This document shows positions 14,775 to 30,896 of a DNA stretch of 34,234 nt, piece after piece. The DNA comes from Singulisphaera sp. GP187 (GTDB lineage: Bacteria; Planctomycetota; Planctomycetia; Gemmatales; Gemmataceae), in contig CAMDQN010000071.1 of NCBI GenBank assembly GCA_945905925.1, positions 1 through 34,234 of the forward strand, read 5' to 3'. Under the pieces are notes generated by a model. The model was given only the letters and a program-made list of their open reading frames with translations. It did not search any database and was not told the DNA's origin. Every line of letters starts with the position of its first letter. Position 1 is the stretch's first letter. The translations under genes and the position numbers were made by a program.

Positions 14775-15713
14775 TCAACTCCGTTCAACGCGGTGCCCGG
14801 GCGAGACGCGGGTGACGAAGCAGGGTACGCGACTGCGGAACCGCTGCACAAGTGACAGCGCGGCGTCACTGTCCGGCGCGACCGCGAACACGGTCGGCCC
14901 CCACGAACTTTGCCCGACCCCGCGAACGCCGCACGTGCGCACCTCGTCGATCAGCGCCGCGATCTCCGGTGAGGCGTATGCGCCGCCTTGCGCCGCGCTA
15001 AAGGGTTCGCCGGCCTTTTGGTTGAACTCGTGGACCGCGGCGCCGAACGCGTCGATGTCACCGCTCTGCGCGGCCGGAACGATGGCACTTTCCGTAAGGT
15101 GCCGGAGCGAGTCAGGGTCGCCGCCTGACGCAGTGGCGAAAGCCCGCCGTTCGTGGTGACTGTGCCAGCCTGCCGCGACCGGTAGCGTGAACAGCACGAC
15201 CCGCCACGCGTCGGGGAGCGCGACGCGGGCGAGCAGTGGCGAGACTTCTTCCTGCGGCAACTTCCCGGCATCGACGAGCAACCCGCCCCAGTCGAAGCCG
15301 TGAACGCCGATCGCGGAGCGCTCGCCGCGCCCGACACGCGCCGCGAGTTCCGCCGACGGCAGCTCCCCTTCCCCGCTCGCGACCGCCAGCGCCTTCGCGA
15401 CCGCCAACCCGAGTTGCGTGCCGACACCCAGTCCGGTGTGTTCCGGCGGACACCGCTCAACGAGTATCTGAAACGGTCGGCGGCGGTCTTCGGGCAGCGC
15501 CAGAACGAATCGCGTTGCGAAGACCTGCGCGCGGCTCGCGAGCAATCCCTCGAACTGCCACGAGTCCGCGGGCTTGACGGTGACGACGACGCCGGGGTGT
15601 TCGACCATCAGGCCCACGCCGCCAAACGCGCGCGCCCCGAGTTCTGTTTCGCCCGCCTTCGGTACGCGGAACAGACCGAAGTGCACCCGGCTCGGTGCGA
15701 CGACGCGAATCAT
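14775..15713 (-). CDS. mptG: Beta-ribofuranosylaminobenzene 5'-phosphate synthase family protein
   Basis: This is a 312-residue GHMP-kinase-superfamily protein. The N-terminus MIRVVAPSRVHFGLF and the glycine motif HTGLGVGTQLGLAVAKALA (about 107-125) are typical of beta-RFAP synthase, which joins PRPP and p-aminobenzoate with loss of CO2 and pyrophosphate in the first committed step of H4MPT synthesis. GRGERSAIGVHGFDWGG and the C-terminal GVRGVGQSSWGPTVFAV fit the same family. GGAGG lies seven bases before ATG 15713. The gene follows DUF447 and PabB on the same strand, but an inverted repeat element fills the gap before it. Other GHMP kinases are less likely given this context. Confidence 0.82.
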   Translation of the reverse strand: MIRVVAPSRVHFGLFRVPKAGETELGARAFGGVGLMVEHPGVVVTVKPADSWQFEGLLASRAQVFATRFVLALPEDRRRPFQILVERCPPEHTGLGVGTQLGLAVAKALAVASGEGELPSAELAARVGRGERSAIGVHGFDWGGLLVDAGKLPQEEVSPLLARVALPDAWRVVLFTLPVAAGWHSHHERRAFATASGGDPDSLRHLTESAIVPAAQSGDIDAFGAAVHEFNQKAGEPFSAAQGGAYASPEIAALIDEVRTCGVRGVGQSSWGPTVFAVAPDSDAALSLVQRFRSRVPCFVTRVSPGHRVERS

Positions 15714-15734
15714 CGTGTCGCCTCCGCACTTCTT

Positions 15735-15863
15735 TCCCTCTCCCCTTGCGGGAGAGGGTGTCGAGTCTTCGAGACGGGTGAGGGGTTGCGCCTTCTGGCT
15801 AACGTTTCACCCCTCACCCGGTCGGCGAAGCGCCGACCACCCTCTCCCGTAAGGGGAGAGGGA
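15735..15863. repeat. Nested inverted repeat, CCCTCTCCCC family
   Basis: Outer arms 15735-15760 and 15838-15863 pair over 26 positions with one G-T wobble. Inside them CGGGTGAGGGGT (15775-15786) pairs perfectly with ACCCCTCACCCG (15809-15820), and GTCGGCG/CGCCGAC (15821-15837) forms a third small hairpin. The transcript could fold into a branched structure. It occupies nearly all of the gap between DUF447 and beta-RFAP synthase, leaving the GGAGG of the latter intact. A partial relative lies at 22605-22632. Confidence 0.8.
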
Positions 15864-15879
15864 CAAGATCGTCGCGCGC

Positions 15880-16449
15880 TCATCGGTTCGCCTCCGCTTC
15901 GCGCAGTTTGGCTTCGAGTAAATCCATCGCGGCATGTTCCGCCGGGCCGCCGGTCTTGCCGACGATGACGCGAAGTTTCGCGAACTCGACCGCAACCTCA
16001 CCGAGCGGAAGAATGTGCAAGCGTGTTGCGAGGATAGCCGCTTCGACGACGGCGTGCTTCGCACGATTGAAGCCGAAGAAGTCCCGCGTGCGTCCGGTGT
16101 GAACCACTTCGAGTTCAATGCTCACGCGCTCACCGCTCGTATCGACGGCCTTCACGACGAACTCGAAGTGCCGACACGAATCGACCAACACGAACCCGCG
16201 AACGCGTTCGGCCGGATGGGTCGGCGGCATTTCCCCGACCACGCCGATCGCGGCCTTCGCCAATAATAGCGCGTCGTCGGTCACGTGAAGCACGCCCTCT
16301 GGATGGCGGAGCAAGTTCTGGTAGGTGTGCGAAGTCGGGAACGGCCTGAGCGTGAACCGCGAAAAGTCCGCCGACACGCACGGTCCCATCGGGGCGAGGT
16401 GCGGCGAGCCATCGGCGTCCGTCGTGGTAACTAGCGCTTCGAGTATCAT
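15880..16449 (-). CDS. DUF447 family protein
   Basis: This is a 189-residue DUF447 protein. The family has a split-barrel fold like FMN-binding flavin reductases, and it recurs with H4MPT biosynthesis genes in archaea and methylotrophic bacteria (from memory). The N-terminus MILEALVTTTDADGSPHLAPMG and LRPFPTSHTYQNLLRHPEGVLHV match the family, as does FFGFNRAKHAVVEAAILATRL. The ATG at 16449 overlaps the TGA of PabB as ATGA, which fixes the start and argues for coupled translation; the longer frame reads antisense-like through PabB. The reaction is unknown. A reductive or flavin-linked step in H4MPT synthesis is inferred. Confidence 0.8.
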   Translation of the reverse strand: MILEALVTTTDADGSPHLAPMGPCVSADFSRFTLRPFPTSHTYQNLLRHPEGVLHVTDDALLLAKAAIGVVGEMPPTHPAERVRGFVLVDSCRHFEFVVKAVDTSGERVSIELEVVHTGRTRDFFGFNRAKHAVVEAAILATRLHILPLGEVAVEFAKLRVIVGKTGGPAEHAAMDLLEAKLREAEANR

Positions 16450-17882
16450 GTCGGGTTCAGTGCTCGGAGCAAACCGGCGGCTTTGTGAAGCGTCTCTTCG
16501 TATTCGCGGGCTGGGTCGCTGTCGGCCACGACGCCGCCGCCGACGGGGAACTGCACCCACCCGCGGCCCGCGGTGAACGTGCGGATCAGGATATTCGTGT
16601 CCATCGCGCCGTCGAACCCGATCCACCCGAGACACCCGCAGTATGGACCGCGTGCGGTCGGTTCCAGTTCCGCGATGATCTCCATCGCGCGCACCTTCGG
16701 CGCGCCGGTCACACTGCCACCGGGGAACGCCGCAGCAAGCAAGTCCAACGGTCCGAGGCCAGCACGCAGTTTGCCGCGAACTTCCGAGACGAGGTGATGC
16801 ACGAAGCGGAAGGTTTCAACTTCGCACACTCGCGGCACTGTCACGGAACCGTATTCGCAAACCTTCCCGATGTCGTTGCGGAGCAGATCCACGATCATCA
16901 CGTTTTCGGCGCGGTCCTTCGGACTGGTGGTGAGGTCGCGGATCAGCGCCGCGTCTTCTTCGGACGTCTTGCCGCGCGGGCGCGTGCCCTTGATCGGTCG
17001 CGTTTCGACTTCGCCATCGGGGTGAACACGCAAGAAGCGTTCCGGCGACGCACTGAGAATCTGGAAGTCACCGAGGTCGAAGTACCCCGCGAACGGTGCC
17101 GGGTTGAGCTGCCGAAGCCGCCCATAAAGCTCCAGCGGGTGTTCGCGGAGCGGCGCGAGGAGCCGCTGGGAGATGTTCACCTGGAAGCAGTCGCCGGCAT
17201 GGACGTACTCGACCGCCCTTCGCACTGCGGCTTCGTACTGCTCGCGGCTGAAGTTACTCGTCACACCGGGGAAACCGGGCAGCGGGTATTGCGGCGCGAG
17301 TGTTGGCGAGCGGTCTTGAGGGGAGTGGAGGGTATAAGCCACCTGTTGAGATCTCAGCAACTCCAATGTTTCATGCAACCGGTTCTTGGCTCGCTCGGAT
17401 TGTTTCGGCCACTCGGCACCCATTTCACCAGTTGAAACCAGCCACGCCCGGCGTTCCTGATGATCGAACGATACGACCCAGTCGTAGCACCCGAGGACAA
17501 GGTCTTGAACCGCGAACTCGTCACGTCGGGCGGCCGGTATCCTCTCGAACAGGCGCCCGAGTCCGTAACTGAACAGTCCAGCATACCCGCCTTGAAATGG
17601 TGGTAGGCGGGGCAGAGCGGCGATGCGACGCGGGGACAGCTCCATCTGTCGCCGACCAGCAAAGTCAGACGCTATGCCGAAAGGATCGGCACTCACATAC
17701 GAATACCTTCCCCTGTCGGTGTGCTTCTCGGCGGAGTCGAGGAACAGGAGGTGTGGGAGGTGCGCCAGTTTCCGTGCCACCGCCCAGGGGTCGGGCGCGG
17801 GCACTAACTCGACCGCCAGCGGGCCGCCCGCTGGCGTCGGCACTGGGCGCGCGTCGAACTGAAGTGGCGCGCCGGTGTCCAT
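16446..17882 (-). CDS. pabB: Aminodeoxychorismate synthase component I
   Basis: This is a 478-residue chorismate-utilising enzyme. An N-terminal Anth_synt_I domain is followed by the chorismate-binding domain (about 215-470). The motif PIKGTRPRG carries the lysine that distinguishes PabB from anthranilate synthase TrpE, which has Ala there. DLLRNDIGKV and GGSVTGAPKVRAMEII are further family motifs. It turns chorismate and ammonia into 4-amino-4-deoxychorismate, the precursor of p-aminobenzoate for folate and H4MPT. ATG 17882 was chosen because the longer frame runs into the terminator at 17904-17929. No PabA or PabC gene is seen here. Its place beside beta-RFAP synthase, a p-aminobenzoate user, suggests dedication to H4MPT. 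Confidence 0.88.
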   Translation of the reverse strand: MDTGAPLQFDARPVPTPAGGPLAVELVPAPDPWAVARKLAHLPHLLFLDSAEKHTDRGRYSYVSADPFGIASDFAGRRQMELSPRRIAALPRLPPFQGGYAGLFSYGLGRLFERIPAARRDEFAVQDLVLGCYDWVVSFDHQERRAWLVSTGEMGAEWPKQSERAKNRLHETLELLRSQQVAYTLHSPQDRSPTLAPQYPLPGFPGVTSNFSREQYEAAVRRAVEYVHAGDCFQVNISQRLLAPLREHPLELYGRLRQLNPAPFAGYFDLGDFQILSASPERFLRVHPDGEVETRPIKGTRPRGKTSEEDAALIRDLTTSPKDRAENVMIVDLLRNDIGKVCEYGSVTVPRVCEVETFRFVHHLVSEVRGKLRAGLGPLDLLAAAFPGGSVTGAPKVRAMEIIAELEPTARGPYCGCLGWIGFDGAMDTNILIRTFTAGRGWVQFPVGGGVVADSDPAREYEETLHKAAGLLRALNPT

Positions 17883-17903
17883 GATTGAAGTATACGGCGC
17901 GCG

Positions 17904-17929
17904 AAAACCCACCTGTTGCGACAGGTGGG
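17904..17929 (-). terminator. Intrinsic terminator after the thioredoxin gene
   Basis: CCCACCTGT (17908-17916) and ACAGGTGGG (17921-17929) form a perfect nine-base stem with a TGCG loop. Read on the minus strand it is followed by TTTTC (17904-17907 and beyond). It lies 37 bases past the stop of the thioredoxin gene and 21 bases before the PabB start, so PabB may be partly separated from it or rely on readthrough. Confidence 0.65.
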
Positions 17930-17966
17930 CTTGCGGGTTGCTGGTTGGTGGAAAGGGCAGGTGAGT

Positions 17967-19121
17967 TTAGCCCTTCGCCTTGATCGCTACTTTTACGAGG
18001 TCGTCGATGGCCTTGTCCAGTTCCTCGTCCTTGGGCGAACCGACCCACTTGTGTTTGATAACGCCAGTGTGGTCGATCACGTACAGCGTCGGGAACGCGC
18101 GCACGCGGTACTTCTTCATCACCGGGTTCTCCTGGCCGTCCTGCCACCAGTGCGTCCACGGCATCTTCTCGTTTTCAAGAAACTTCTGAAGCGTCTCCTT
18201 CTTGTTGTCCACACTCACGCTGATCAACTCGAATGGCTTGTCCTTCATGCTCTCTACCAGTTTGCGCTCGTGCGGAATCATTCGCACGCATGGCCCGCAC
18301 CACGTCGCCCAGATGTCGAGCAGCACAACCTTACCCTTGGAACCGGAGAGATTCACCTTCTTGCCGTCGAGCAGGAGCGATTCGACTTCCGGGGCCGACT
18401 TGCCGATCGCCAGCGAGGTAATCGCCTTCAAGTTCTCGATCTGCTTGGCGGCGAGTTCGGCGATGGTGGGGCTTTTCGGATCGGCGCCGACCTTCGCGGT
18501 CGGGGCTTCCTTCGCGGCCTTCTCCAAGAGGTCGATCGCGCCCTTTGCAAGCAACTCGGCCTTCGCGTCGTCCTCTTCTTCCTCGACATCCCGGACGGTC
18601 TTCACCGCGAGGAGGTAACCCGCGACGGCTTTCGTGTCCTTGTCCGGGTTGTTCTCGGCAACTGCCTTTAGAAGCCGGTCGCTCGCCTCACCAAGACTCG
18701 CGGCTGGGAGGAGCAGATTCTTCACCTTCGGGTTGGCCGCGTGGTGTTCCGCGATCAGTTTCAGCGCCTTCGTGACGTCGTCACTGGTCGCGCGCGCCTT
18801 GCCGCACGTTTCCACGATGAACGCGGTCGCGTCGAGCGCAACGTCGTCCTTCGGGTCCGTTTCGATAATGTCGAGAACCTTGCTCGCGGTGAGGAGCACG
18901 AGTTCCTTGATCTCGGCTTGAATGGCGCGTTGGTCGGCGGGCGATTCGGCCCTCGCGAGCGATGCCTTCAGTTCCTTGTGCTCCTCGTCGAACTTTTTCT
19001 TGCGCGCGGCGAGCTTCTCCGCCCGCTCGCTCTTCGGCGCGTCGGCCGGTTTCTTGTCTTCGGCGTAGACGAACCACAAACCCAACGACAGGGATAGCGC
19101 GGCGGCACAGAGCAGGCGCAT
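17967..19121 (-). CDS. TlpA-like thioredoxin-domain protein
   Basis: This is a 384-residue exported protein. Residues 1-21 are a Sec signal (MRLLCAAALSLSLGLWFVYA). A long Lys/Glu/Ala-rich helical region follows (about 22-240), with helical repeats that may resemble HEAT or TPR but match none that I can name. The C-terminal third (about 255-380) is a thioredoxin domain with DIWATWCGPCVRMIPHE; WCGPC is the redox pair and RAFPTLYVI holds the cis-proline. It is probably a periplasmic disulfide reductase of the TlpA/ResA type. GAGG precedes the ATG. It sits between the dihydropteroate-synthase-like gene and PabB, with no obvious link to H4MPT. Confidence 0.83.
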   Translation of the reverse strand: MRLLCAAALSLSLGLWFVYAEDKKPADAPKSERAEKLAARKKKFDEEHKELKASLARAESPADQRAIQAEIKELVLLTASKVLDIIETDPKDDVALDATAFIVETCGKARATSDDVTKALKLIAEHHAANPKVKNLLLPAASLGEASDRLLKAVAENNPDKDTKAVAGYLLAVKTVRDVEEEEDDAKAELLAKGAIDLLEKAAKEAPTAKVGADPKSPTIAELAAKQIENLKAITSLAIGKSAPEVESLLLDGKKVNLSGSKGKVVLLDIWATWCGPCVRMIPHERKLVESMKDKPFELISVSVDNKKETLQKFLENEKMPWTHWWQDGQENPVMKKYRVRAFPTLYVIDHTGVIKHKWVGSPKDEELDKAIDDLVKVAIKAKG

Positions 19122-19204
19122 CGGGGCGTCCTCGGGTGAAAGGAGAGTTTCAACACGGCCCGCGTGAGCCGTTCCGGTATTCGTCCAGTTTACGCTGTGG
19201 GAGT

Positions 19205-19339
19205 GAAACAGGAAGAGTATTCACCGCAGGAGGGACGCGGAGAAGACAACAGAGCGTTGATCTGTCCTCACTCTTTCTCTGTCTTGCGTCTTCTCTCTGC
19301 ATCCTCCGCATTCTCCGCGGTGAATACTTTTCCTGTTTC
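19205..19339. repeat. Inverted repeat overlapping the end of the DHPS-like gene
   Basis: Arms 19205-19227 (GAAACAGGAAGAGTATTCAC...) and 19317-19339 pair over 23 bases with one G-T wobble. The interior has further complementary tracts (AGGAGGGACGCGGAGAAG against CTTCTCTCTGCATCCTCC). The right arm and part of the interior are translated as the last 23 or so residues of the upstream gene. Confidence 0.75.
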
Positions 19340-20716
19340 GCCGCGGTGGCTCGTTTCCGGCACGGTCAGGAAGCCCCAGCGCAGCGCCTGATCCTGCGTG
19401 TACGCCTTGCTGAGCGTCAGCGCCGTCACCGCCTTCGCGAACTCGTAGCCGAGGTAGAACGAGTGCGCCGCGTCGAGCTTCGGGTCGGTCGCCGCGAGCT
19501 GCGCGAACAGCGCGAACGGGTCCGTGCCGCGAAGATAGATGCTGCCGTTGAGGACGTGTAGTTCGCCGCGCTCCGCGAAGACCCGGTAGTTGCGATCCGT
19601 CACGCGACGCGCGAGATCCTGCAACGCCTCTTCACCGAGTTCATGCACCTTCGGATCACGGAGCATCACCAAGCCCGGTTCGAGGCGCTTCGGCAGCACC
19701 TTCTCGCGAATTGCGTGGAACACCAACCGGCGCGCGAGGTCGAACTCCTTCACCGACGAGCGAGCCCAGTCGATCACTTCCGTCGTCAGCACGCTGCGCA
19801 CGCCGAGTTCCTGACAGAAGCCCGCGAGCAGCACGTTTACGCCCGCGGAGTCCGCGTCGGTTAGTTCGGTGAGATTGCCGACACCCATCATCAGTTCCAC
19901 GTCCGCGAACCGGTGGCGTGTCTCGATGTACCTCCCCAACGAAGCCGCGAACCCGAAGCCGATCGGTTCGAGGATCGGGTCGAGCCGGTGCGCAATGCCG
20001 ATGCCACGAAGAATATCGGCCGTGCGCGCGAGGCTATCGAGGTCGTTCGGTGTATCGGGGATCGCGACAACTTCGACGTGTGGGTGCAGTGCGTGCCACT
20101 GACGAGCGTGTTCGACGTTGGTGCCGTTGACGCTCAGCACGAGTTCCGCACCGGCCCCAAGCGCGGCGTCCACCTCTTCGGGATTGAAGCTGTCGATCGA
20201 AACGCGGAACCCGTCGGCGCGGAGCGCGCGAACGGTGTCGCCCACACCGCTCCACGCGGGTCCGGGGTCGCAGCCCAGATCAATTACATCCGCGCCGCTG
20301 TCGCGGTAGCGGCGAGCTTCAGTGAGGATCACGTCAAGCGACTTCTTCGCGGCGTGGTTCACCTCCGCGAGAATCTCGATGTCGAACTTCCCGTAATCGC
20401 GCGGTGGCGTGGCTGCTTGCTTGAAGAACTCCGGCAGGTCACGCAGGTCGATAGGGCCTCTTTCTGCAGGCGCGCCCACCGCGCGTGACACGTCTTCCAC
20501 TTCGCCGCGACAGAACCCAGGCAGAACCACGCGCTCGATGTCAGGCGGGAGTTGTGGCAGGTGGCGTGCGACCCAGTCGGTCGTCATCAGCGCGGCGACG
20601 GTGATCGGCAGAACGGCGACGTGCGGATCGAAACCGGCCTTTGGGGCAAGTTCGTCCACCACGCGCCGCAACGACGGTTCCGCGAGCTTCCCGGTGATGA
20701 ACAGAATGCGATTCAT
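19268..20716 (-). CDS. Dihydropteroate-synthase-like protein, DUF6513 type
   Basis: This is a 482-residue protein with an N-terminal domain MNRILFITGKLAEPSLRRVV (DUF6513) and a dihydropteroate-synthase-like barrel (about 110-330). The barrel shows FDIEILAEVNHAAKK, ADVIDLGCDPG, VSIDSFNPEEVDAA and LSVNGTNVEHA. This family replaces folate-type DHPS in H4MPT-making archaea and methylotrophs, so it probably joins the pterin to the RFAP-derived arylamine, though the step is inferred. Its ATG overlaps the GT2 stop as ATGA. The C-terminus after LTVPETSHRG reads ETGKVFTAENAEDAERRRKT and continues to the stop, and this tail is encoded by the inverted repeat at 19205-19339. The native end was probably near TVPETSHRG. 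Confidence 0.8.
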   Translation of the reverse strand: MNRILFITGKLAEPSLRRVVDELAPKAGFDPHVAVLPITVAALMTTDWVARHLPQLPPDIERVVLPGFCRGEVEDVSRAVGAPAERGPIDLRDLPEFFKQAATPPRDYGKFDIEILAEVNHAAKKSLDVILTEARRYRDSGADVIDLGCDPGPAWSGVGDTVRALRADGFRVSIDSFNPEEVDAALGAGAELVLSVNGTNVEHARQWHALHPHVEVVAIPDTPNDLDSLARTADILRGIGIAHRLDPILEPIGFGFAASLGRYIETRHRFADVELMMGVGNLTELTDADSAGVNVLLAGFCQELGVRSVLTTEVIDWARSSVKEFDLARRLVFHAIREKVLPKRLEPGLVMLRDPKVHELGEEALQDLARRVTDRNYRVFAERGELHVLNGSIYLRGTDPFALFAQLAATDPKLDAAHSFYLGYEFAKAVTALTLSKAYTQDQALRWGFLTVPETSHRGETGKVFTAENAEDAERRRKTEKE

Positions 20717-21567
20717 GACGCGGGAGTTGGAGAACCAGCGGGCGGCGCCCCGGCTTCTTGCGGGTTCACTTTCGGCGCGGAATCGAACGCGAACTTGGGG
20801 TCACGGAACACGGTTCGGCAGTCCGCAGTCACCGGGCTTATCGGCTCCGTTTTCGGCGTGAGCGGGATCTCGTCCATGATGCTCGTGAGGAATGTCGCCT
20901 TCGCCACCAGTTCCGCGTGGACGAAATCACCGTCGGACTGAATCGGGAACCGTTTCAGGAACGCGGTGCGATACAACTTGAACGCGCTGTTCACGTCGGC
21001 GAGCGGAACGCCGAACACCCAACCGGCGCGAGCCCGATACCACCATTCGGACCAGCCGTACCACGGCGACGACTCCACCATCGGCAAACCAGCGAAGACG
21101 CGCCAGAATAACTTCCACGCACCGCCCAGCCACTTCAGAAACGCCGGGCGCAACTGGCCCGCGCGCGCGCCGCTAATGAGGTCCGGTTGCTTCCCGAACA
21201 CTTCGTCTCGCAGTTCAATGCGCTCCAACATCGGGCGGATGTCAGTCGGTGTGTATTGGTTGTCGATGCCCGCGTACAGGAACAGCGGTTGCGTCGTTTC
21301 CGCCAGCGCCGTGCGGAGGCACGCGCCGAACCCGCGCTGAGTGTCGTGCGTTAACACTCGCAAGTGCGGCACACGCGGACCGAGTTTCTCCAGAGCCGCG
21401 GGTGTGCCGTCGGTGCTGCCGTCGTTCACAACGATGAGCTGAAAGGGGCGGTTCAGGTTATTCAGCAGAACGCCCCACGCGGGCAGCATCTTTTCGACCT
21501 GCGCGACCGCGTTGTGGGCCGGGATGACGACGGTCACGCCGTCGCGCGGGGCAATTGGTTTGGCCAT
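20713..21567 (-). CDS. Family 2 glycosyltransferase
   Basis: This is a 284-residue GT-A fold glycosyltransferase resembling dolichol-phosphate mannose synthase. Motifs are VTVVIPAHNAVAQVEKMLPA (nucleotide-sugar binding), VVNDGSTDGTPAALE and GFGACLRTALAE. The usual DxD-like stretch is replaced by YAGIDNQYTPTDI, which keeps Asp and Gln but is atypical. The middle holds FWRVFAGLPMVESSPWYGW, and no C-terminal membrane anchor is seen. ATG 21567 was chosen because family members begin just before the VTVVIPAHN strand; a TTG at 21624 would overlap the GT39 end. The stop overlaps the DHPS-like start. With GT39 and the ABC exporter it probably makes or modifies a lipid-linked sugar. Confidence 0.78.
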   Translation of the reverse strand: MAKPIAPRDGVTVVIPAHNAVAQVEKMLPAWGVLLNNLNRPFQLIVVNDGSTDGTPAALEKLGPRVPHLRVLTHDTQRGFGACLRTALAETTQPLFLYAGIDNQYTPTDIRPMLERIELRDEVFGKQPDLISGARAGQLRPAFLKWLGGAWKLFWRVFAGLPMVESSPWYGWSEWWYRARAGWVFGVPLADVNSAFKLYRTAFLKRFPIQSDGDFVHAELVAKATFLTSIMDEIPLTPKTEPISPVTADCRTVFRDPKFAFDSAPKVNPQEAGAPPAGSPTPAS

Positions 21568-21613: not shown

Positions 21614-23149
21614 TCACTCCACAATGCGGAGGCACACCAGCGGCCGATGAGGACGAACAGAAGTGAAGTCCGCGAGCACCGCGACCGGTACGAATTTCCG
21701 CCCGGTTATCAGTTCCGCGTCGACCACGCACTCCGGCGGCATCACGACCACGTGCGGGCCGTTTGCCGCGAGCGCGTCCTTCAGTTCGCCCCACTCCACC
21801 AGAGTATGCAGCGGCGAACCGAGATGGTAGGCGAGCAAGTGCGACTCGGTGCGGAACAGTAAAATGGTTCGCGGTTTCGGTGCGTGTTCGCGGATCGCCG
21901 CGGCGAACGACTGCTTCTCCTGGCGGGCCGTTTCCGCCGGCTCGACCACAAACCACATCACCGGCCACACCGCGAGCGCGCACGCGACCAACACGCCAAA
22001 CGCCCACTTCGCGCGCGTCGCGGATCGCGGGTTGGCGCGCGCAGTGAGCCACCGTTCGGCGGCGCATCCGAGCGCGATCGCGGCACCGGGGAACGCCGGG
22101 AGCAAATAATCCGCACGTTTGAACCGCGCCGCCGACAGCACCGCGACCATCACCACAAGCCACACCACACCGAAACGAAACAGCCGCGATTCCTTCCATA
22201 CTCCAGAGCGCAACCCAGACACCGCGAGCGGCACGAGGAGCAGCGTCCACGGCATGAACGCGAGCGCGAACCGCGGGCCGTAGTACCACCGTGGGTGCGA
22301 CGCGAGCGACTCCGACGTGCCCGCAAACCGTTCGACGTTGTGGTGCCAGAAGAACACGCGCACGAACTCGCCGTCGGTCGCGTGCTGTGCCCACACGAAC
22401 CACGGCAGCGCGACGAGCGCGACGACGAATACACCGAGAACCGTGGAGAGTAACGGAAGTCGCGGGCGATCGGATTTCGGTGACGCGAATCGTTCGACGA
22501 AAAGGAACGCGACCGCGGTGCTTCCGATTAGAGCCAACCCAACCGGACCTTTGAGCAACACCGCGAACCCCGCCGCGACCGCAGAGAGGACGAACCATTT
22601 TTCCCCCTCTCCCCTTGTGGGAGAGGGACAAGAACGGCGGCACCCGCGATAGAACGCGAGCAGCGCCACCGCGACCGCACACGTCAACGGCACGTCGATG
22701 CGAGCCGTGCGCCCGATCGCGACAAAATGGTTCGCGGTTGCGAGTGCAATCGCAGCGACGAGCGCACCGGTCGCGTAGCCTTCGCGCCTCAGGAAGCCGT
22801 AGACGAGCAGCACCGCGACGAGACCGCTCGCGGCGGCGGGGAATCGCGCCACCCACGGCGACACGTGCCCGCCGTTGAGCCACCCCATCGCCGCGACGAG
22901 CCAGTAGAAACCGGGCGGCTTCTGCAAATCGCGCTGGCCGTCGAAGAGGGTCGGTAAGCCCCATTCGCCGGTGTCGAGCATTCGTTGCGCGTTCTGCGCG
23001 GCGCGGGCCTCGTGACTGCTCACCAGATCGCGTGCGCCGAGTTGAAAGAAGAACAGCGCGAAGAGAAATGCGAGAACGAGCAGAGTTGGCCCGTTAGCCG
23101 CAAGCCGAAGGCGAGCGTGACCCGGGCGCGCACGACGCAGGGACAACAC
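21614..23149 (-). CDS. Family 39 glycosyltransferase (ArnT/PMT type)
   Basis: This is a 511-residue integral membrane protein with about 10-12 helices, of the PMT_2/ArnT type that transfers sugars from polyprenyl phosphate. SSHEARAAQNAQRMLDTGEW carries the family's acidic catalytic region after helix 1, followed by LQKPPGFYWL and GRTARIDVPLT. The start is GTG directly after the TAA of the ABC exporter gene, with GGAAGG upstream. Two insertions are odd: residues about 12-19 (ARLRLAAN) come from a repeat of the GTTAGCCGC family, and about 173-182 (CPSPTRGEGE) from the CCCTCTCCCC family. The second falls in a loop between membrane helices, so the protein may still work. The product is inferred to be a cell-surface glycolipid. 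Confidence 0.85.
   Translation of the reverse strand: MLSLRRARPGHARLRLAANGPTLLVLAFLFALFFFQLGARDLVSSHEARAAQNAQRMLDTGEWGLPTLFDGQRDLQKPPGFYWLVAAMGWLNGGHVSPWVARFPAAASGLVAVLLVYGFLRREGYATGALVAAIALATANHFVAIGRTARIDVPLTCAVAVALLAFYRGCRRSCPSPTRGEGEKWFVLSAVAAGFAVLLKGPVGLALIGSTAVAFLFVERFASPKSDRPRLPLLSTVLGVFVVALVALPWFVWAQHATDGEFVRVFFWHHNVERFAGTSESLASHPRWYYGPRFALAFMPWTLLLVPLAVSGLRSGVWKESRLFRFGVVWLVVMVAVLSAARFKRADYLLPAFPGAAIALGCAAERWLTARANPRSATRAKWAFGVLVACALAVWPVMWFVVEPAETARQEKQSFAAAIREHAPKPRTILLFRTESHLLAYHLGSPLHTLVEWGELKDALAANGPHVVVMPPECVVDAELITGRKFVPVAVLADFTSVRPHRPLVCLRIVE
22605..22632. repeat. Partial CCCTCTCCCC element inside the GT39 gene
   Basis: CCCTCTCCC (22605-22613) and GGGAGAGGG (22619-22627) form a nine-base stem with a five-base loop, followed by ACAAGA. 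The last part matches the end of the element at 15735-15863 (GAGAGGGACAAGA). Here it is translated in frame as SCPSPTRGEGE, on the minus strand. Confidence 0.7.
23093..23117. repeat. GTTAGCCGC element at the start of the GT39 gene
   Basis: The 25-base stretch starting GTTAGCCGCAAGCCG differs at one base from that at 31786-31810, and at one base from the reverse complement of 31833-31857. It is translated in GT39 as ARLRLAAN near the N-terminus, before the first membrane helix. Confidence 0.7.
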
Positions 23150-29328: not shown

Positions 29329-29832
29329 ATGCTGCTGTACCTGATCCGGCACGCCAAGGCGGTGGAACTCGGTTCACCCGGCGCAGCACGCGACTTCGAC
29401 CGCTCTCTCACCCCTCACGGTCACGCCCAAACACTTGCAGTCGCCGAGGCGTTCGCCCGGCTCAAAATCACCATCGACACAGTGGTTGCGAGTCCGCTCG
29501 TTCGCGCGCATCAGACCGCGGTTGGACTGCTGAGTGTGTGGCAACCCGGCGCACGGCCAATCACCTACAACGCGCTAGCTCCAGAGCGTCTGAAGCCGGC
29601 GAAGTTCTCGGAGTTCTTGGCCGAGGTGCCGGGTGACTGCGTCGCGGCGGTCGGCCACATGCCCGATCTCGGCGCCTACGCCGAGTGGCTCCTCGGCGCT
29701 CCAAACGGCAGCATCCAACTGGCGAAGTGCGCCGCCGCTTGCATCGAGTTCAAGGGCGACCCGAGCAAGGCCGGTGGCAAACTGCACTGGCTCGTCACGC
29801 CCAAATGGGTCCTTGAAGTGAAGGGTTCTTGA
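29329..29832 (+). CDS. sixA: SixA-like phosphohistidine phosphatase
   Basis: This is a 167-residue histidine phosphatase. Motifs are LIRHAKA (Arg7 and catalytic His8), then VVASPLVRAHQTA and VGHMPDLGAYAEWLLG with the second histidine. SixA removes phosphate from phosphohistidine, for example in phosphotransfer proteins. The compact size and single domain fit SixA rather than phosphoglycerate mutase. ATG 29329 was chosen because GGAG lies seven bases upstream and because the RHAK motif must sit near the N-terminus. The stop codon is inside the left arm of a 45-base-pair inverted repeat that separates it from the next, convergent gene. Confidence 0.85.
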   Translation: MLLYLIRHAKAVELGSPGAARDFDRSLTPHGHAQTLAVAEAFARLKITIDTVVASPLVRAHQTAVGLLSVWQPGARPITYNALAPERLKPAKFSEFLAEVPGDCVAAVGHMPDLGAYAEWLLGAPNGSIQLAKCAAACIEFKGDPSKAGGKLHWLVTPKWVLEVKGS

Positions 29833-29929
29833 AGAGAAGGGGAGAAAGGGTGAAGGGGAGATAAGACGACAGCACATTGGCTTGGTCTTGTCTCCCCTTC
29901 ACCCTTTCTCCCCTTCTCTTCAAGAACCC
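29823..29929. repeat. 45-base-pair inverted repeat between convergent genes
   Basis: The 39-base arm 29823-29861 is the exact reverse complement of 29891-29929. After one G-T wobble the inner AAGAC (29863-29867) also pairs with GTCTT (29885-29889), leaving a 17-base loop. The arm starts in the sixA stop region and ends seven bases before the next convergent stop. A bidirectional terminator or long RNA stem is the simplest role. Its purine-rich arm does not resemble a tRNA or transposon end. Confidence 0.85.
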
Positions 29930-29936
29930 CTTACTC

Positions 29937-30857
29937 TTACTTCCCCGCAGCCCACCGCTTCCACGCGGCTTCGAGCATCGCCAGGTCTTTATCCTTCCAC
30001 CCGGCGGCGTCCAGCCCTTGCGGGATTGTCGGCGCCGCGTTGTTCTCGCCCGGCTTCAACCCGTCGAGGAACATGGGGAACTTCGGTGCGGCGGCAGTGC
30101 TATAGGCGAGGTACTCCGCGAAGCTCGTCGCGAGTACGTCGCCGTTGGTGACCTTCGCGTCGCCCCAGATGTCTGCCAGGACCGGTGGCCTTCCACCCTT
30201 CGGCCCGAGTAGCGCGGTCCGCACCTGTGCCCGGTATGCCGTGTAACGCTTCGATGTGGTGCCCTCGGCCCGTGCCGCGGTGGCGCGGCCGAACCCGTCG
30301 CGCAGCCACTCGGGGACGTTCTGCGTGCCGGTTCCCTTCGCCTTGAGGTGTTCGCCGGCCAAGCGCGCCGCGGTGTTCGCGTACTGGTCCGCGTCGGTCA
30401 GTTTGCCCGGCGCGTCGGCCGGATCGACGATGAACGCCGGTTCGGCGCGAAGGTCAGCGTGAACGCCTTCGGGCGGGATCTGGAACGCCCGCCGCATCAG
30501 CGCCTTGTACTCCGCGTTGTCGTTCATGAAGTACACGACGAGTTTGCCCCTCCACGGCGTTTCCTTCTCCTCGTACTTGAGCGTTTTGCGTGCGAGCGCG
30601 GTCGTCTTCTCCAGAACCTCGCCCAGCGCCTTTGCTTTCTCCTCGGACAGCGATCCCACGACGAGGTAGTTGGTCGTCTCCACGACTGATGGCTTGTCGA
30701 TGTTGGCTTTCTTCAGGTTCGCGACGGCGGCAGCCTTCGCCTTCGTCACCAGTTCTTTGTCCTGTGCGGGCGCGGAAACCGGCGCGATGATCGCGAGAGT
30801 GAAGGCAACCGCAACGAACAACGCGACCACGACGACAGAGCGAACGCGGAGCAACAT
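29937..30857 (-). CDS. Exported degenerate metallopeptidase-like protein
   Basis: This 306-residue protein has a Sec signal (residues 1-32). An N-terminal helical/beta region (LVVGSLSEEKAKALGEVLEK) is followed by WRGKLVVYFMNDNAEYKALM and, near 170-195, ARLAGEHLKAKG...VPEWLRDGFGRATA. That spacing resembles gluzincin peptidases with HExxH then PxWLxEG, but here the zinc-binding HExxH is absent (AGEHL) and Glu is Asp in LRDGFG, so it is probably not an active peptidase. The family match is a guess from pattern. ATG 30857 was chosen because GGAG lies seven bases upstream. It follows dapB but has its own promoter at 30897-30902. Confidence 0.5.
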   Translation of the reverse strand: MLLRVRSVVVVALFVAVAFTLAIIAPVSAPAQDKELVTKAKAAAVANLKKANIDKPSVVETTNYLVVGSLSEEKAKALGEVLEKTTALARKTLKYEEKETPWRGKLVVYFMNDNAEYKALMRRAFQIPPEGVHADLRAEPAFIVDPADAPGKLTDADQYANTAARLAGEHLKAKGTGTQNVPEWLRDGFGRATAARAEGTTSKRYTAYRAQVRTALLGPKGGRPPVLADIWGDAKVTNGDVLATSFAEYLAYSTAAAPKFPMFLDGLKPGENNAAPTIPQGLDAAGWKDKDLAMLEAAWKRWAAGK

Positions 30858-30896
30858 GGCGGGTCTCCGGTGAAGAGGCAACAGTACAGATCGCTG

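What the first reader, a model, noticed from the sequence alone, without database searches (positions are those of the whole stretch)
14775..20716. Tetrahydromethanopterin synthesis cluster in a planctomycete, with pABA synthesis included
Seen: a DHPS-like DUF6513 protein, PabB (Lys in PIKGT), DUF447 and a beta-RFAP synthase lie on one strand, and PabB and DUF447 share an ATGA overlap. Known: beta-RFAP synthase uses p-aminobenzoate, whose precursor PabB makes; planctomycetes can carry H4MPT-linked C1 genes. Inferred: PabB is dedicated to H4MPT and not folate. A TlpA-like thioredoxin interrupts the cluster, which is odd.
Basis: partly seen in the sequence, partly recalled or inferred. Interest (0 to 1): 0.6.

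Follow-up and report, generated by a model that had tools for sequence, protein, structure and literature searches.

The report
Gemmata-type tetrahydromethanopterin synthesis cluster
A planctomycete bacterium carries a known kind of gene cluster for making a methanogen-style one-carbon coenzyme, including the gene for its building block p-aminobenzoate, which the cell most likely also uses for ordinary folate; the open point of interest is an uncharacterised flavin protein (DUF447) that tracks this pathway closely.

Summary
In detail: a DHPS-like DUF6513 protein, a TlpA-like thioredoxin, PabB (PIKGT), DUF447 and a divergent beta-RFAP synthase lie on the minus strand, and pabB and DUF447 share an ATGA overlap. 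The genome also has fae, a fae homologue and an mch locus, so an H4MPT biosynthesis cluster is the right reading. The claim that PabB is dedicated to H4MPT is not supported: one pabB and one trpE were found here, the 22 Mch-positive planctomycete genomes sampled have two chorismate-binding matches each, and a Mch-negative genome keeps a PabB of the same clade. Canonical folP is in 17 of 19 genus genomes but not in this assembly, where the block around it is missing too (gap or loss). TlpA is a lineage-conserved neighbour (17 of 79 family loci). In 22 of 34 named loci that hold PabB, pabA lies next to it. pabB among H4MPT genes is already in print. The most interesting element is DUF447: FMN-bound in solved homologues, over its cut-off in exactly the 22 Mch-positive of 148 planctomycete genomes, and overlapping the RFAP synthase gene in 39 of 41 family loci. 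It is a candidate missing reductase.

The parts
14775..15713 (-). divergent beta-RFAP synthase (MptG-like): pABA + PRPP to RFAP
   Evidence: GHMP domains; BetaRFA-P_synth 116 bits and TIGR00144 96 bits, both under the cut-offs; solved ForT/RFAP-synthase chains, E 1.8e-5; 34-39% identity to four RFAP-synthase-family proteins of other H4MPT loci
15735..15863 (.). small inverted-repeat element between DUF447 and RFAP synthase; separates two genes that overlap in most relatives
   Evidence: 26-nt arms, 96% complementary; DUF447-to-RFAPS gap 166 here, -4 in 39 of 41 family loci
15880..16449 (-). DUF447 flavoprotein, candidate reductase of H4MPT biosynthesis
   Evidence: DUF447_N/C; 41% identical to 3b5m and the fold of DUF447-type structures 2iml, 2nr4, 2ptf, which are described as flavin-bound; ATGA overlap with pabB
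16446..17912 (-). PabB, aminodeoxychorismate synthase component I (GTG start given; exact start uncertain)
   Evidence: TIGR00553 348 bits over cut-off; PIKGT; only pabB found in the genome
17967..19121 (-). TlpA/ResA-like thioredoxin with a signal-peptide-like N-terminus (by reading); conserved neighbour, probably no role in the pathway
   Evidence: Redoxin/AhpC-TSA; within 600 bases of PabB in 17 of 79 family loci
19205..19339 (.). small inverted-repeat element at the 3' end of the DHPS-like gene; supplies its last codons and stop
   Evidence: 23-nt arms, 96% complementary; the closest relative's protein lacks the C-terminal tail
19268..20716 (-). DUF6513 DHPS-like protein, proposed to join the pterin pyrophosphate to RFAP
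   Evidence: DUF6513 + Pterin_bind; TIGR00284 188 bits, under its cut-off of 257; predicted fold (pLDDT 90) matches DHPS first
20713..21567 (-). family 2 glycosyltransferase upstream (ORF listed to 21624), stop overlapping the DHPS-like ATG; conserved neighbour, not a pathway gene
   Evidence: Glycos_transf_2; junction; also upstream of the DHPS-like gene in other genera, e.g. L085, L086, L088, L098

Best explanation
This is a planctomycete tetrahydromethanopterin (H4MPT) biosynthesis operon of a Gemmata-type bacterium. PabB (with a PabA/TrpG amidotransferase encoded elsewhere) makes aminodeoxychorismate, which becomes pABA. The RFAP-synthase-like GHMP protein joins pABA to PRPP. The DUF6513 DHPS-like protein joins the product to the pterin pyrophosphate. 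DUF447, an FMN-type flavoprotein, does a reduction in the same pathway. The single PabB supplies pABA for both H4MPT and folate, so it is encoded with one of its consumers and not dedicated to it. The coenzyme serves Fae/Mch-linked formaldehyde handling. Shown: gene content, order, conservation, co-occurrence, one pabB found. Inferred: each catalytic step, the double use of pABA, expression as one operon. The confidence is for the H4MPT cluster with a shared pabB; the single steps are less sure.
For: fae in 91 of 95 and DUF447 in 83 of 95 family genomes; mch in 21 of 21 family genomes sampled, the own one included. Own mch locus: mch-RimK/MptN-like-CitG-PTPS. Within 600 bases on one strand: DUF6513-PabB in 28 and PabB-DUF447 in 39 of 79 family loci, DUF447-RFAPS in 41 of 42 of them with DUF447. 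DUF447 over cut-off in exactly the 22 Mch-positive of 148 planctomycete genomes. The same gene kinds lie in annotated H4MPT loci of Azoarcus and Azospirillum brasilense, and pabB lies in those of Azospirillum oryzae and Ca. Thiodictyon. Named planctomycetes: Singulisphaera and Aquisphaera have mch, fhc, DUF6513, DUF447 and RFAPS in one locus; Bythopirellula has DUF6513-PabB-PabA-DUF447-RFAPS. One pabB.
Against: The RFAP-synthase-like and DUF6513 proteins score under their NCBIfam cut-offs. In a five-row alignment an Asp of two proteobacterial members is Arg here; if it is D19 of the Methanothermobacter enzyme, D19A there was inactive and D19N partly active (PMC6787355, passages). The DUF6513 protein lacks the SRK and RVHD motifs of FolP. 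No canonical folP was found in this assembly, so the folate half of the shared-pABA claim rests on relatives. By the script's rule 41 of 80 named DUF6513 loci show no PabB nearby. RFAPS was not found beside DUF447 in 7 of 21 loci of the phylum sample, at 1.5 kb flanks. For G216, a Mch-positive genome, the place read is TrpE-type and its second match was not listed. H. volcanii has DUF447 and mch matches though PMC8305020 (passages) says methanopterin-specific enzymes are absent from haloarchaea.
Confidence: 0.82

Rival explanations
1. PabB is functionally dedicated to H4MPT; folate is imported or its pABA comes from another enzyme, and this genome has truly lost folP.
For: pabB overlaps DUF447 by ATGA here and in 15 of 39 family loci. 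PabBs of 36 rows labelled H4MPT-positive form one group with only one Mch-negative planctomycete. No canonical folP in this assembly; the folP block of the closest relative has only a 218-base match at 69% and a 30-base match here.
Against: One pabB here, and two chorismate-binding matches in 22 of 22 Mch-positive genomes. 17 of 19 genus genomes, the closest relative included, have canonical folP and so should need pABA for folate. G208 keeps this PabB type without mch. The missing block includes both flanks, which fits an assembly gap (96.6% complete, 251 contigs).
Confidence: 0.1
2. The DUF6513 protein is the methanofuran enzyme MfnF and the cluster makes methylofuran.
For: It is followed by DUF447 and MfnB in Azoarcus and Azospirillum brasilense.
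Against: In Azoarcus the MfnF match is a separate hydantoinase-like protein (TIGR03123 over cut-off, NF040623 under it), while the DUF6513 protein matches TIGR00284, as here.
Confidence: 0.03
3. DUF447 is the planctomycete replacement of AfpA/DmrB, the last-step dihydromethanopterin reductase.
For: No match over 34 bits to the AfpA model in 148 planctomycete genomes, 22 of them Mch-positive, while an AfpA-like Azoarcus protein scores 84. PMC5020050 (section 0, part 1 of 3 read) says Afp is not recognised in planctomycetes. DUF447 is flavin-bound in solved homologues.
Against: DUF447 lies in one gene run with the AfpA-like flavoprotein in Azoarcus, and all 4 archaeal controls have DUF447, so it is not simply a substitute.
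Confidence: 0.1

Closest known systems
Proteobacterial 'archaeal-like' H4MPT/methylofuran gene clusters (Azoarcus, Azospirillum, Ca. Thiodictyon here; Methylorubrum extorquens in the literature)
   Same: Between them RFAP synthase, DUF6513, DUF447, mch, fae and, in two of those looked at, pabB; DUF6513 and DUF447 overlap in Azoarcus and A. brasilense
   Different: There DUF447 is followed by MfnB, and in Azoarcus and Paraburkholderia a flavoprotein precedes DUF6513 (in Paraburkholderia other genes part DUF6513 and DUF447). Here DUF447 overlaps pabB and is followed by RFAP synthase, and no AfpA-like protein was found
Planctomycete H4MPT gene sets (Singulisphaera, Aquisphaera, Bythopirellula, Limnoglobus and MAGs)
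   Same: DUF6513, DUF447 and RFAPS together; Limnoglobus roseus has DUF6513-PabB-DUF447-RFAPS without TlpA
   Different: Singulisphaera and Aquisphaera have mch and fhc beside it and no PabB there; Bythopirellula and others add pabA; TlpA next to PabB is seen in a subset of the family
Folate pABA synthesis (PabAB) and canonical DHPS (FolP)
   Same: PabB family and DHPS fold
   Different: The DUF6513 protein lacks the SRK and RVHD motifs and has extra N- and C-terminal parts

Membership tests
Aminodeoxychorismate synthase component I (PabB) | score over the curated cut-off of TIGR00553 | tested here: met
   348 of 328.4 bits
Aminodeoxychorismate synthase component I (PabB) | Lys in PIKGT (Ala in anthranilate synthase; rule recalled) | tested here: met
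   Lys here, Ala in the other gene
beta-RFAP synthase | score over the NF040726 or TIGR00144 cut-off | tested here: not met
   116 of 328 and 96 of 113.5 bits
beta-RFAP synthase | whole-length similarity to RFAP-synthase-type proteins | tested here: met
   solved ForT/RFAP-synthase chains, residues 2-280, E 1.8e-5; alignment
beta-RFAP synthase | D19 and R26 of the Methanothermobacter enzyme (PMC6787355) | tested here: inconclusive
   an Arg aligns in the R26 region and an Asp of two proteobacterial members is Arg here, on five rows without the archaeal enzyme
Canonical dihydropteroate synthase | SRK and RVHD motifs (recalled; found in three FolPs of relatives) | tested here: not met
   absent in the 13 DUF6513 proteins aligned in full; in 45 the residues G278, G280, N281 and E284 are invariant at that place
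DUF6513 / TIGR00284 DHPS-like protein | DUF6513 and Pterin_bind domains over cut-off; DHPS-like fold | tested here: met
DUF6513 / TIGR00284 DHPS-like protein | score over the TIGR00284 cut-off | tested here: not met
   188 of 256.65 bits
DUF447 | DUF447_N and DUF447_C over cut-off; fold of the solved DUF447 structures | tested here: met
H4MPT-linked C1 pathway | fae and mch in the genome | tested here: met
H4MPT-linked C1 pathway | mtdB and fhcABCD in the genome | not tested
Dedicated H4MPT pabB | a second pabB for folate in the same genome | tested here: not met
   one pabB, one trpE in an assembly 96.6% complete

The most novel reading that the evidence does not exclude
DUF447 is the unidentified FMN reductase of H4MPT biosynthesis that acts on the RFAP synthase product (or its pterin conjugate) and opens the ribofuranose to the ribitol chain found in H4MPT (chemistry of the coenzyme recalled). 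It would be shared by archaea, proteobacteria and planctomycetes.
Probability: 0.25. Interest if true: 0.65.

Novelty: new member of a known kind. Interest (0 to 1): 0.3.

Why it matters
The cluster is a further example of H4MPT genes in planctomycetes, which are in print (PMC5020050), as is pabB among H4MPT genes of methylotrophs (PMC3615186). What it adds is a clean comparative case: pABA supply (pabB, in many relatives pabA too) is part of the planctomycete H4MPT operon and yet the only pabB found in the cell. It also singles out DUF447, a family with four solved entries, three described as flavin-bound, and no role given in the titles and abstract starts that a search for its name listed, as an H4MPT enzyme. 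A 2011 paper on Methanothermobacter still lists an estimated seven unknown proteins of methanopterin synthesis (PMC3087415, passages). Assigning DUF447 would fill one.

Tried and rejected
DUF6513 = MfnF: rejected, MfnF matches a different protein. DUF447 = plain substitute for AfpA: weakened, both lie in one gene run in Azoarcus. PabB phylogeny as proof of dedication: the split of H4MPT-positive and -negative PabBs is also what taxonomy could give, supports between the two halves are moderate (94 and 93, SH-aLRT alone), and G208 breaks it. The tree used 88 rows: 16 family PabBs (15 of the 79 fetched around PabB, plus the own one), 20 further H4MPT-positive rows, 43 Mch-negative rows picked from the higher-scoring places, 6 TrpE and 3 proteobacterial. 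Of the 16 family rows 7 were tested for mch and the others are labelled positive from fae.

One Bradyrhizobium plasmid region with pabB was looked at: it holds biotin and pantothenate genes and a PabA-type gene and no H4MPT gene in 21 kb, so not every plasmid pabB like this one is H4MPT-linked. The Cupriavidus record had no annotation in the region and was not used. folP gap or loss: not resolved. Two of five FolP loci were read on the wrong strand and are not counted.

Papers, search listings only unless said: DUF447, 7 papers; MJ0301 with dihydropteroate: none. Passages or parts were read of PMC8141765, PMC5020050, PMC6193120, PMC3615186, PMC2474590, PMC3087415, PMC8305020 and PMC6787355. 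Two papers that matter, PMC1065231 and PMC1151760, are not held. That orf19/orf20 of methylotrophs are DUF6513/DUF447 is inferred from the Azoarcus order and the order quoted in PMC3615186, not read.
Full report
What is there. The window is contig C71 of a 6.47 Mb, 251-contig genome, 96.6% complete. Records of loci in the same genus or family are titled Gemmata, Gemmataceae or Planctomycetia. On the minus strand, in order of transcription, lie a family 2 glycosyltransferase, a DUF6513/Pterin_bind protein, a TlpA-like thioredoxin, PabB, DUF447 and a GHMP-type RFAP-synthase-like protein. The DHPS-like ATG overlaps the glycosyltransferase stop, and the DUF447 ATG overlaps the PabB stop.

H4MPT genes elsewhere in the genome. 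fae (C16) and a fae homologue (C248) are present, mch is on C164, and after mch lie a RimK/MptN-like ligase, a CitG-like protein and a PTPS protein. mtdB and fhc were not searched in this genome.

How many pabB genes. Chorismate_bind finds two places in the genome. One is the window's PabB; the other has PLAGT and sits beside a TrpB-like gene, so it is trpE. Across 95 family genomes 90 have one or two matches to PabB and five have three; one of the five, G086, has two of PabB-type score and is 7% contaminated, and the third matches of the others were not examined. In 11 of the 95 no match over about 305 bits, the TrpE range, was seen, so not every assembly shows a PabB. Across 148 planctomycete genomes the 22 Mch-positive ones have exactly two matches each. 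The first refutation, a single pabB, is met, so the dedicated-PabB claim falls.

Is folate made? Canonical folP is found in 17 of 19 genomes of the genus but not in this one or in G020. The two Pterin_bind matches here are the window's DUF6513 protein and one in a 1217-residue frame, MetH-like by length. A 3.7 kb stretch around folP of the closest relative finds only a 218-base match at 69% and a 30-base match; the former reads as a glutathione-peroxidase-like gene in another setting. Both flanks are missing with folP, so an assembly gap and a deletion remain possible.

Evolution of PabB. In a tree of 88 rows, 36 PabBs labelled H4MPT-positive group with one Mch-negative planctomycete, G208 of the same class, while the other 42 Mch-negative ones lie elsewhere. 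H4MPT-bearing lineages thus share a PabB lineage, but G208 suggests that it can live without H4MPT. Of the 22 Mch-positive genomes of the phylum sample 21 have a row in this group (one a fragment); for G216 the place read is TrpE-type.

Order in relatives. Of 79 fetched family loci around PabB, 28 have the DUF6513 gene within 600 bases upstream, 17 have TlpA next to PabB, 8 have DUF6513-TlpA-PabB, 39 have DUF447 after PabB, and 41 of 42 with DUF447 have RFAP synthase beside it (contig ends lower these counts). DUF447 overlaps RFAP synthase by ATGA in 39 of 41 measurable loci, and PabB overlaps DUF447 in 15 of 39. In the window the DUF447-RFAPS overlap is broken by a small inverted-repeat element. 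Around DUF447 itself RFAPS follows in 30 of 30 family loci but was found in only 14 of 21 loci of the phylum sample. The tightest link is thus DUF447 with RFAP synthase, and TlpA looks like a passenger of one lineage. Bythopirellula polymerisocia has DUF6513-PabB-PabA-DUF447-RFAPS. Six named loci hold fhc matches and five hold mch.

DUF447. Over its cut-off it occurs in exactly the 22 genomes with mch among 148; one more, G187, has a match under the cut-off. The 22 fall in eight family codes and are related, so these are not 148 independent cases, but within family f48, where four members were sampled, only the Mch-positive one has DUF447. It also occurs in all 4 archaeal controls, including Sulfolobus acidocaldarius, which has no mch match, and Haloferax volcanii. 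The predicted structure (pLDDT 97) matches a Rhodopirellula baltica structure (Z 26) and three archaeal entries described as bound to FMN or riboflavin 5'-phosphate, then flavin reductases. No AfpA-model match over 34 bits was seen in the 148 genomes, where the AfpA-like Azoarcus protein scores 84. The last-step reductase is thus not identified in planctomycetes, and DUF447 is the flavin-type protein that goes with the pathway. Because it shares a gene run with the AfpA-like protein in Azoarcus, I favour an earlier reduction, the opening of the ribose of RFAP; that H4MPT carries an open ribitol chain is recalled. No call tests an activity.

DUF6513. The predicted fold (pLDDT 90) matches DHPS first, with TM-scores by target length of about 0.58-0.71 at 17-21% identity; a methyltransferase at rank 24 is not far behind in E-value. 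The SRK and RVHD motifs of FolP are replaced by an invariant GxGN stretch and LT-V. It works like a DHPS in outline; its proposed substrate, RFAP in place of pABA, is inferred from context.

Known or new. PMC5020050 (section 0, part 1 of 3 read) reviews H4MPT genes in planctomycetes and says Afp is not recognised there. PMC3615186 (one passage read) calls pabB commonly associated with H4MPT biosynthesis in methylotrophs. PMC8141765 (passages read) says that all genes of the M. [quoted passage not shown] The cluster is therefore a new member of a known kind; the DUF447 proposal is the part worth a test.

Noticed in passing
19205-19339 and 15735-15863: Two roughly 130-base inverted-repeat elements sit in this operon; one supplies the tail and stop of the DHPS-like gene, the other separates DUF447 from RFAP synthase, which overlap in most relatives.
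   Followed up: partly
22596-22639, inside the ORF 21614-23149: A palindrome like that at 15727-15874 (84% and 83% over 32 and 35 bases) lies inside a coding frame and encodes an SPTRGEGEKW-like insert.
   Followed up: no
L311 10844-11515 and 21 other named loci: A PabA-type glutamine amidotransferase lies next to pabB in H4MPT loci of Bythopirellula and other planctomycetes, but was found in 0 of 79 family loci of the window's kind.
   Followed up: yes
29817-29935: A 51-base inverted repeat with 94% complementary arms and a 17-base loop lies just past the 3' end of the minus-strand ORF 29937-30881.
   Followed up: no
genome G000: No canonical folP in the assembly, unlike 17 of 19 genus genomes; the block around it is missing too.
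   Followed up: partly
L188 (Paraburkholderia plasmid): DUF6513 and DUF447 are parted by a transposase and a set of carbon-fixation genes (RuBisCO, phosphoribulokinase, CbbX) in an H4MPT locus.
   Followed up: no
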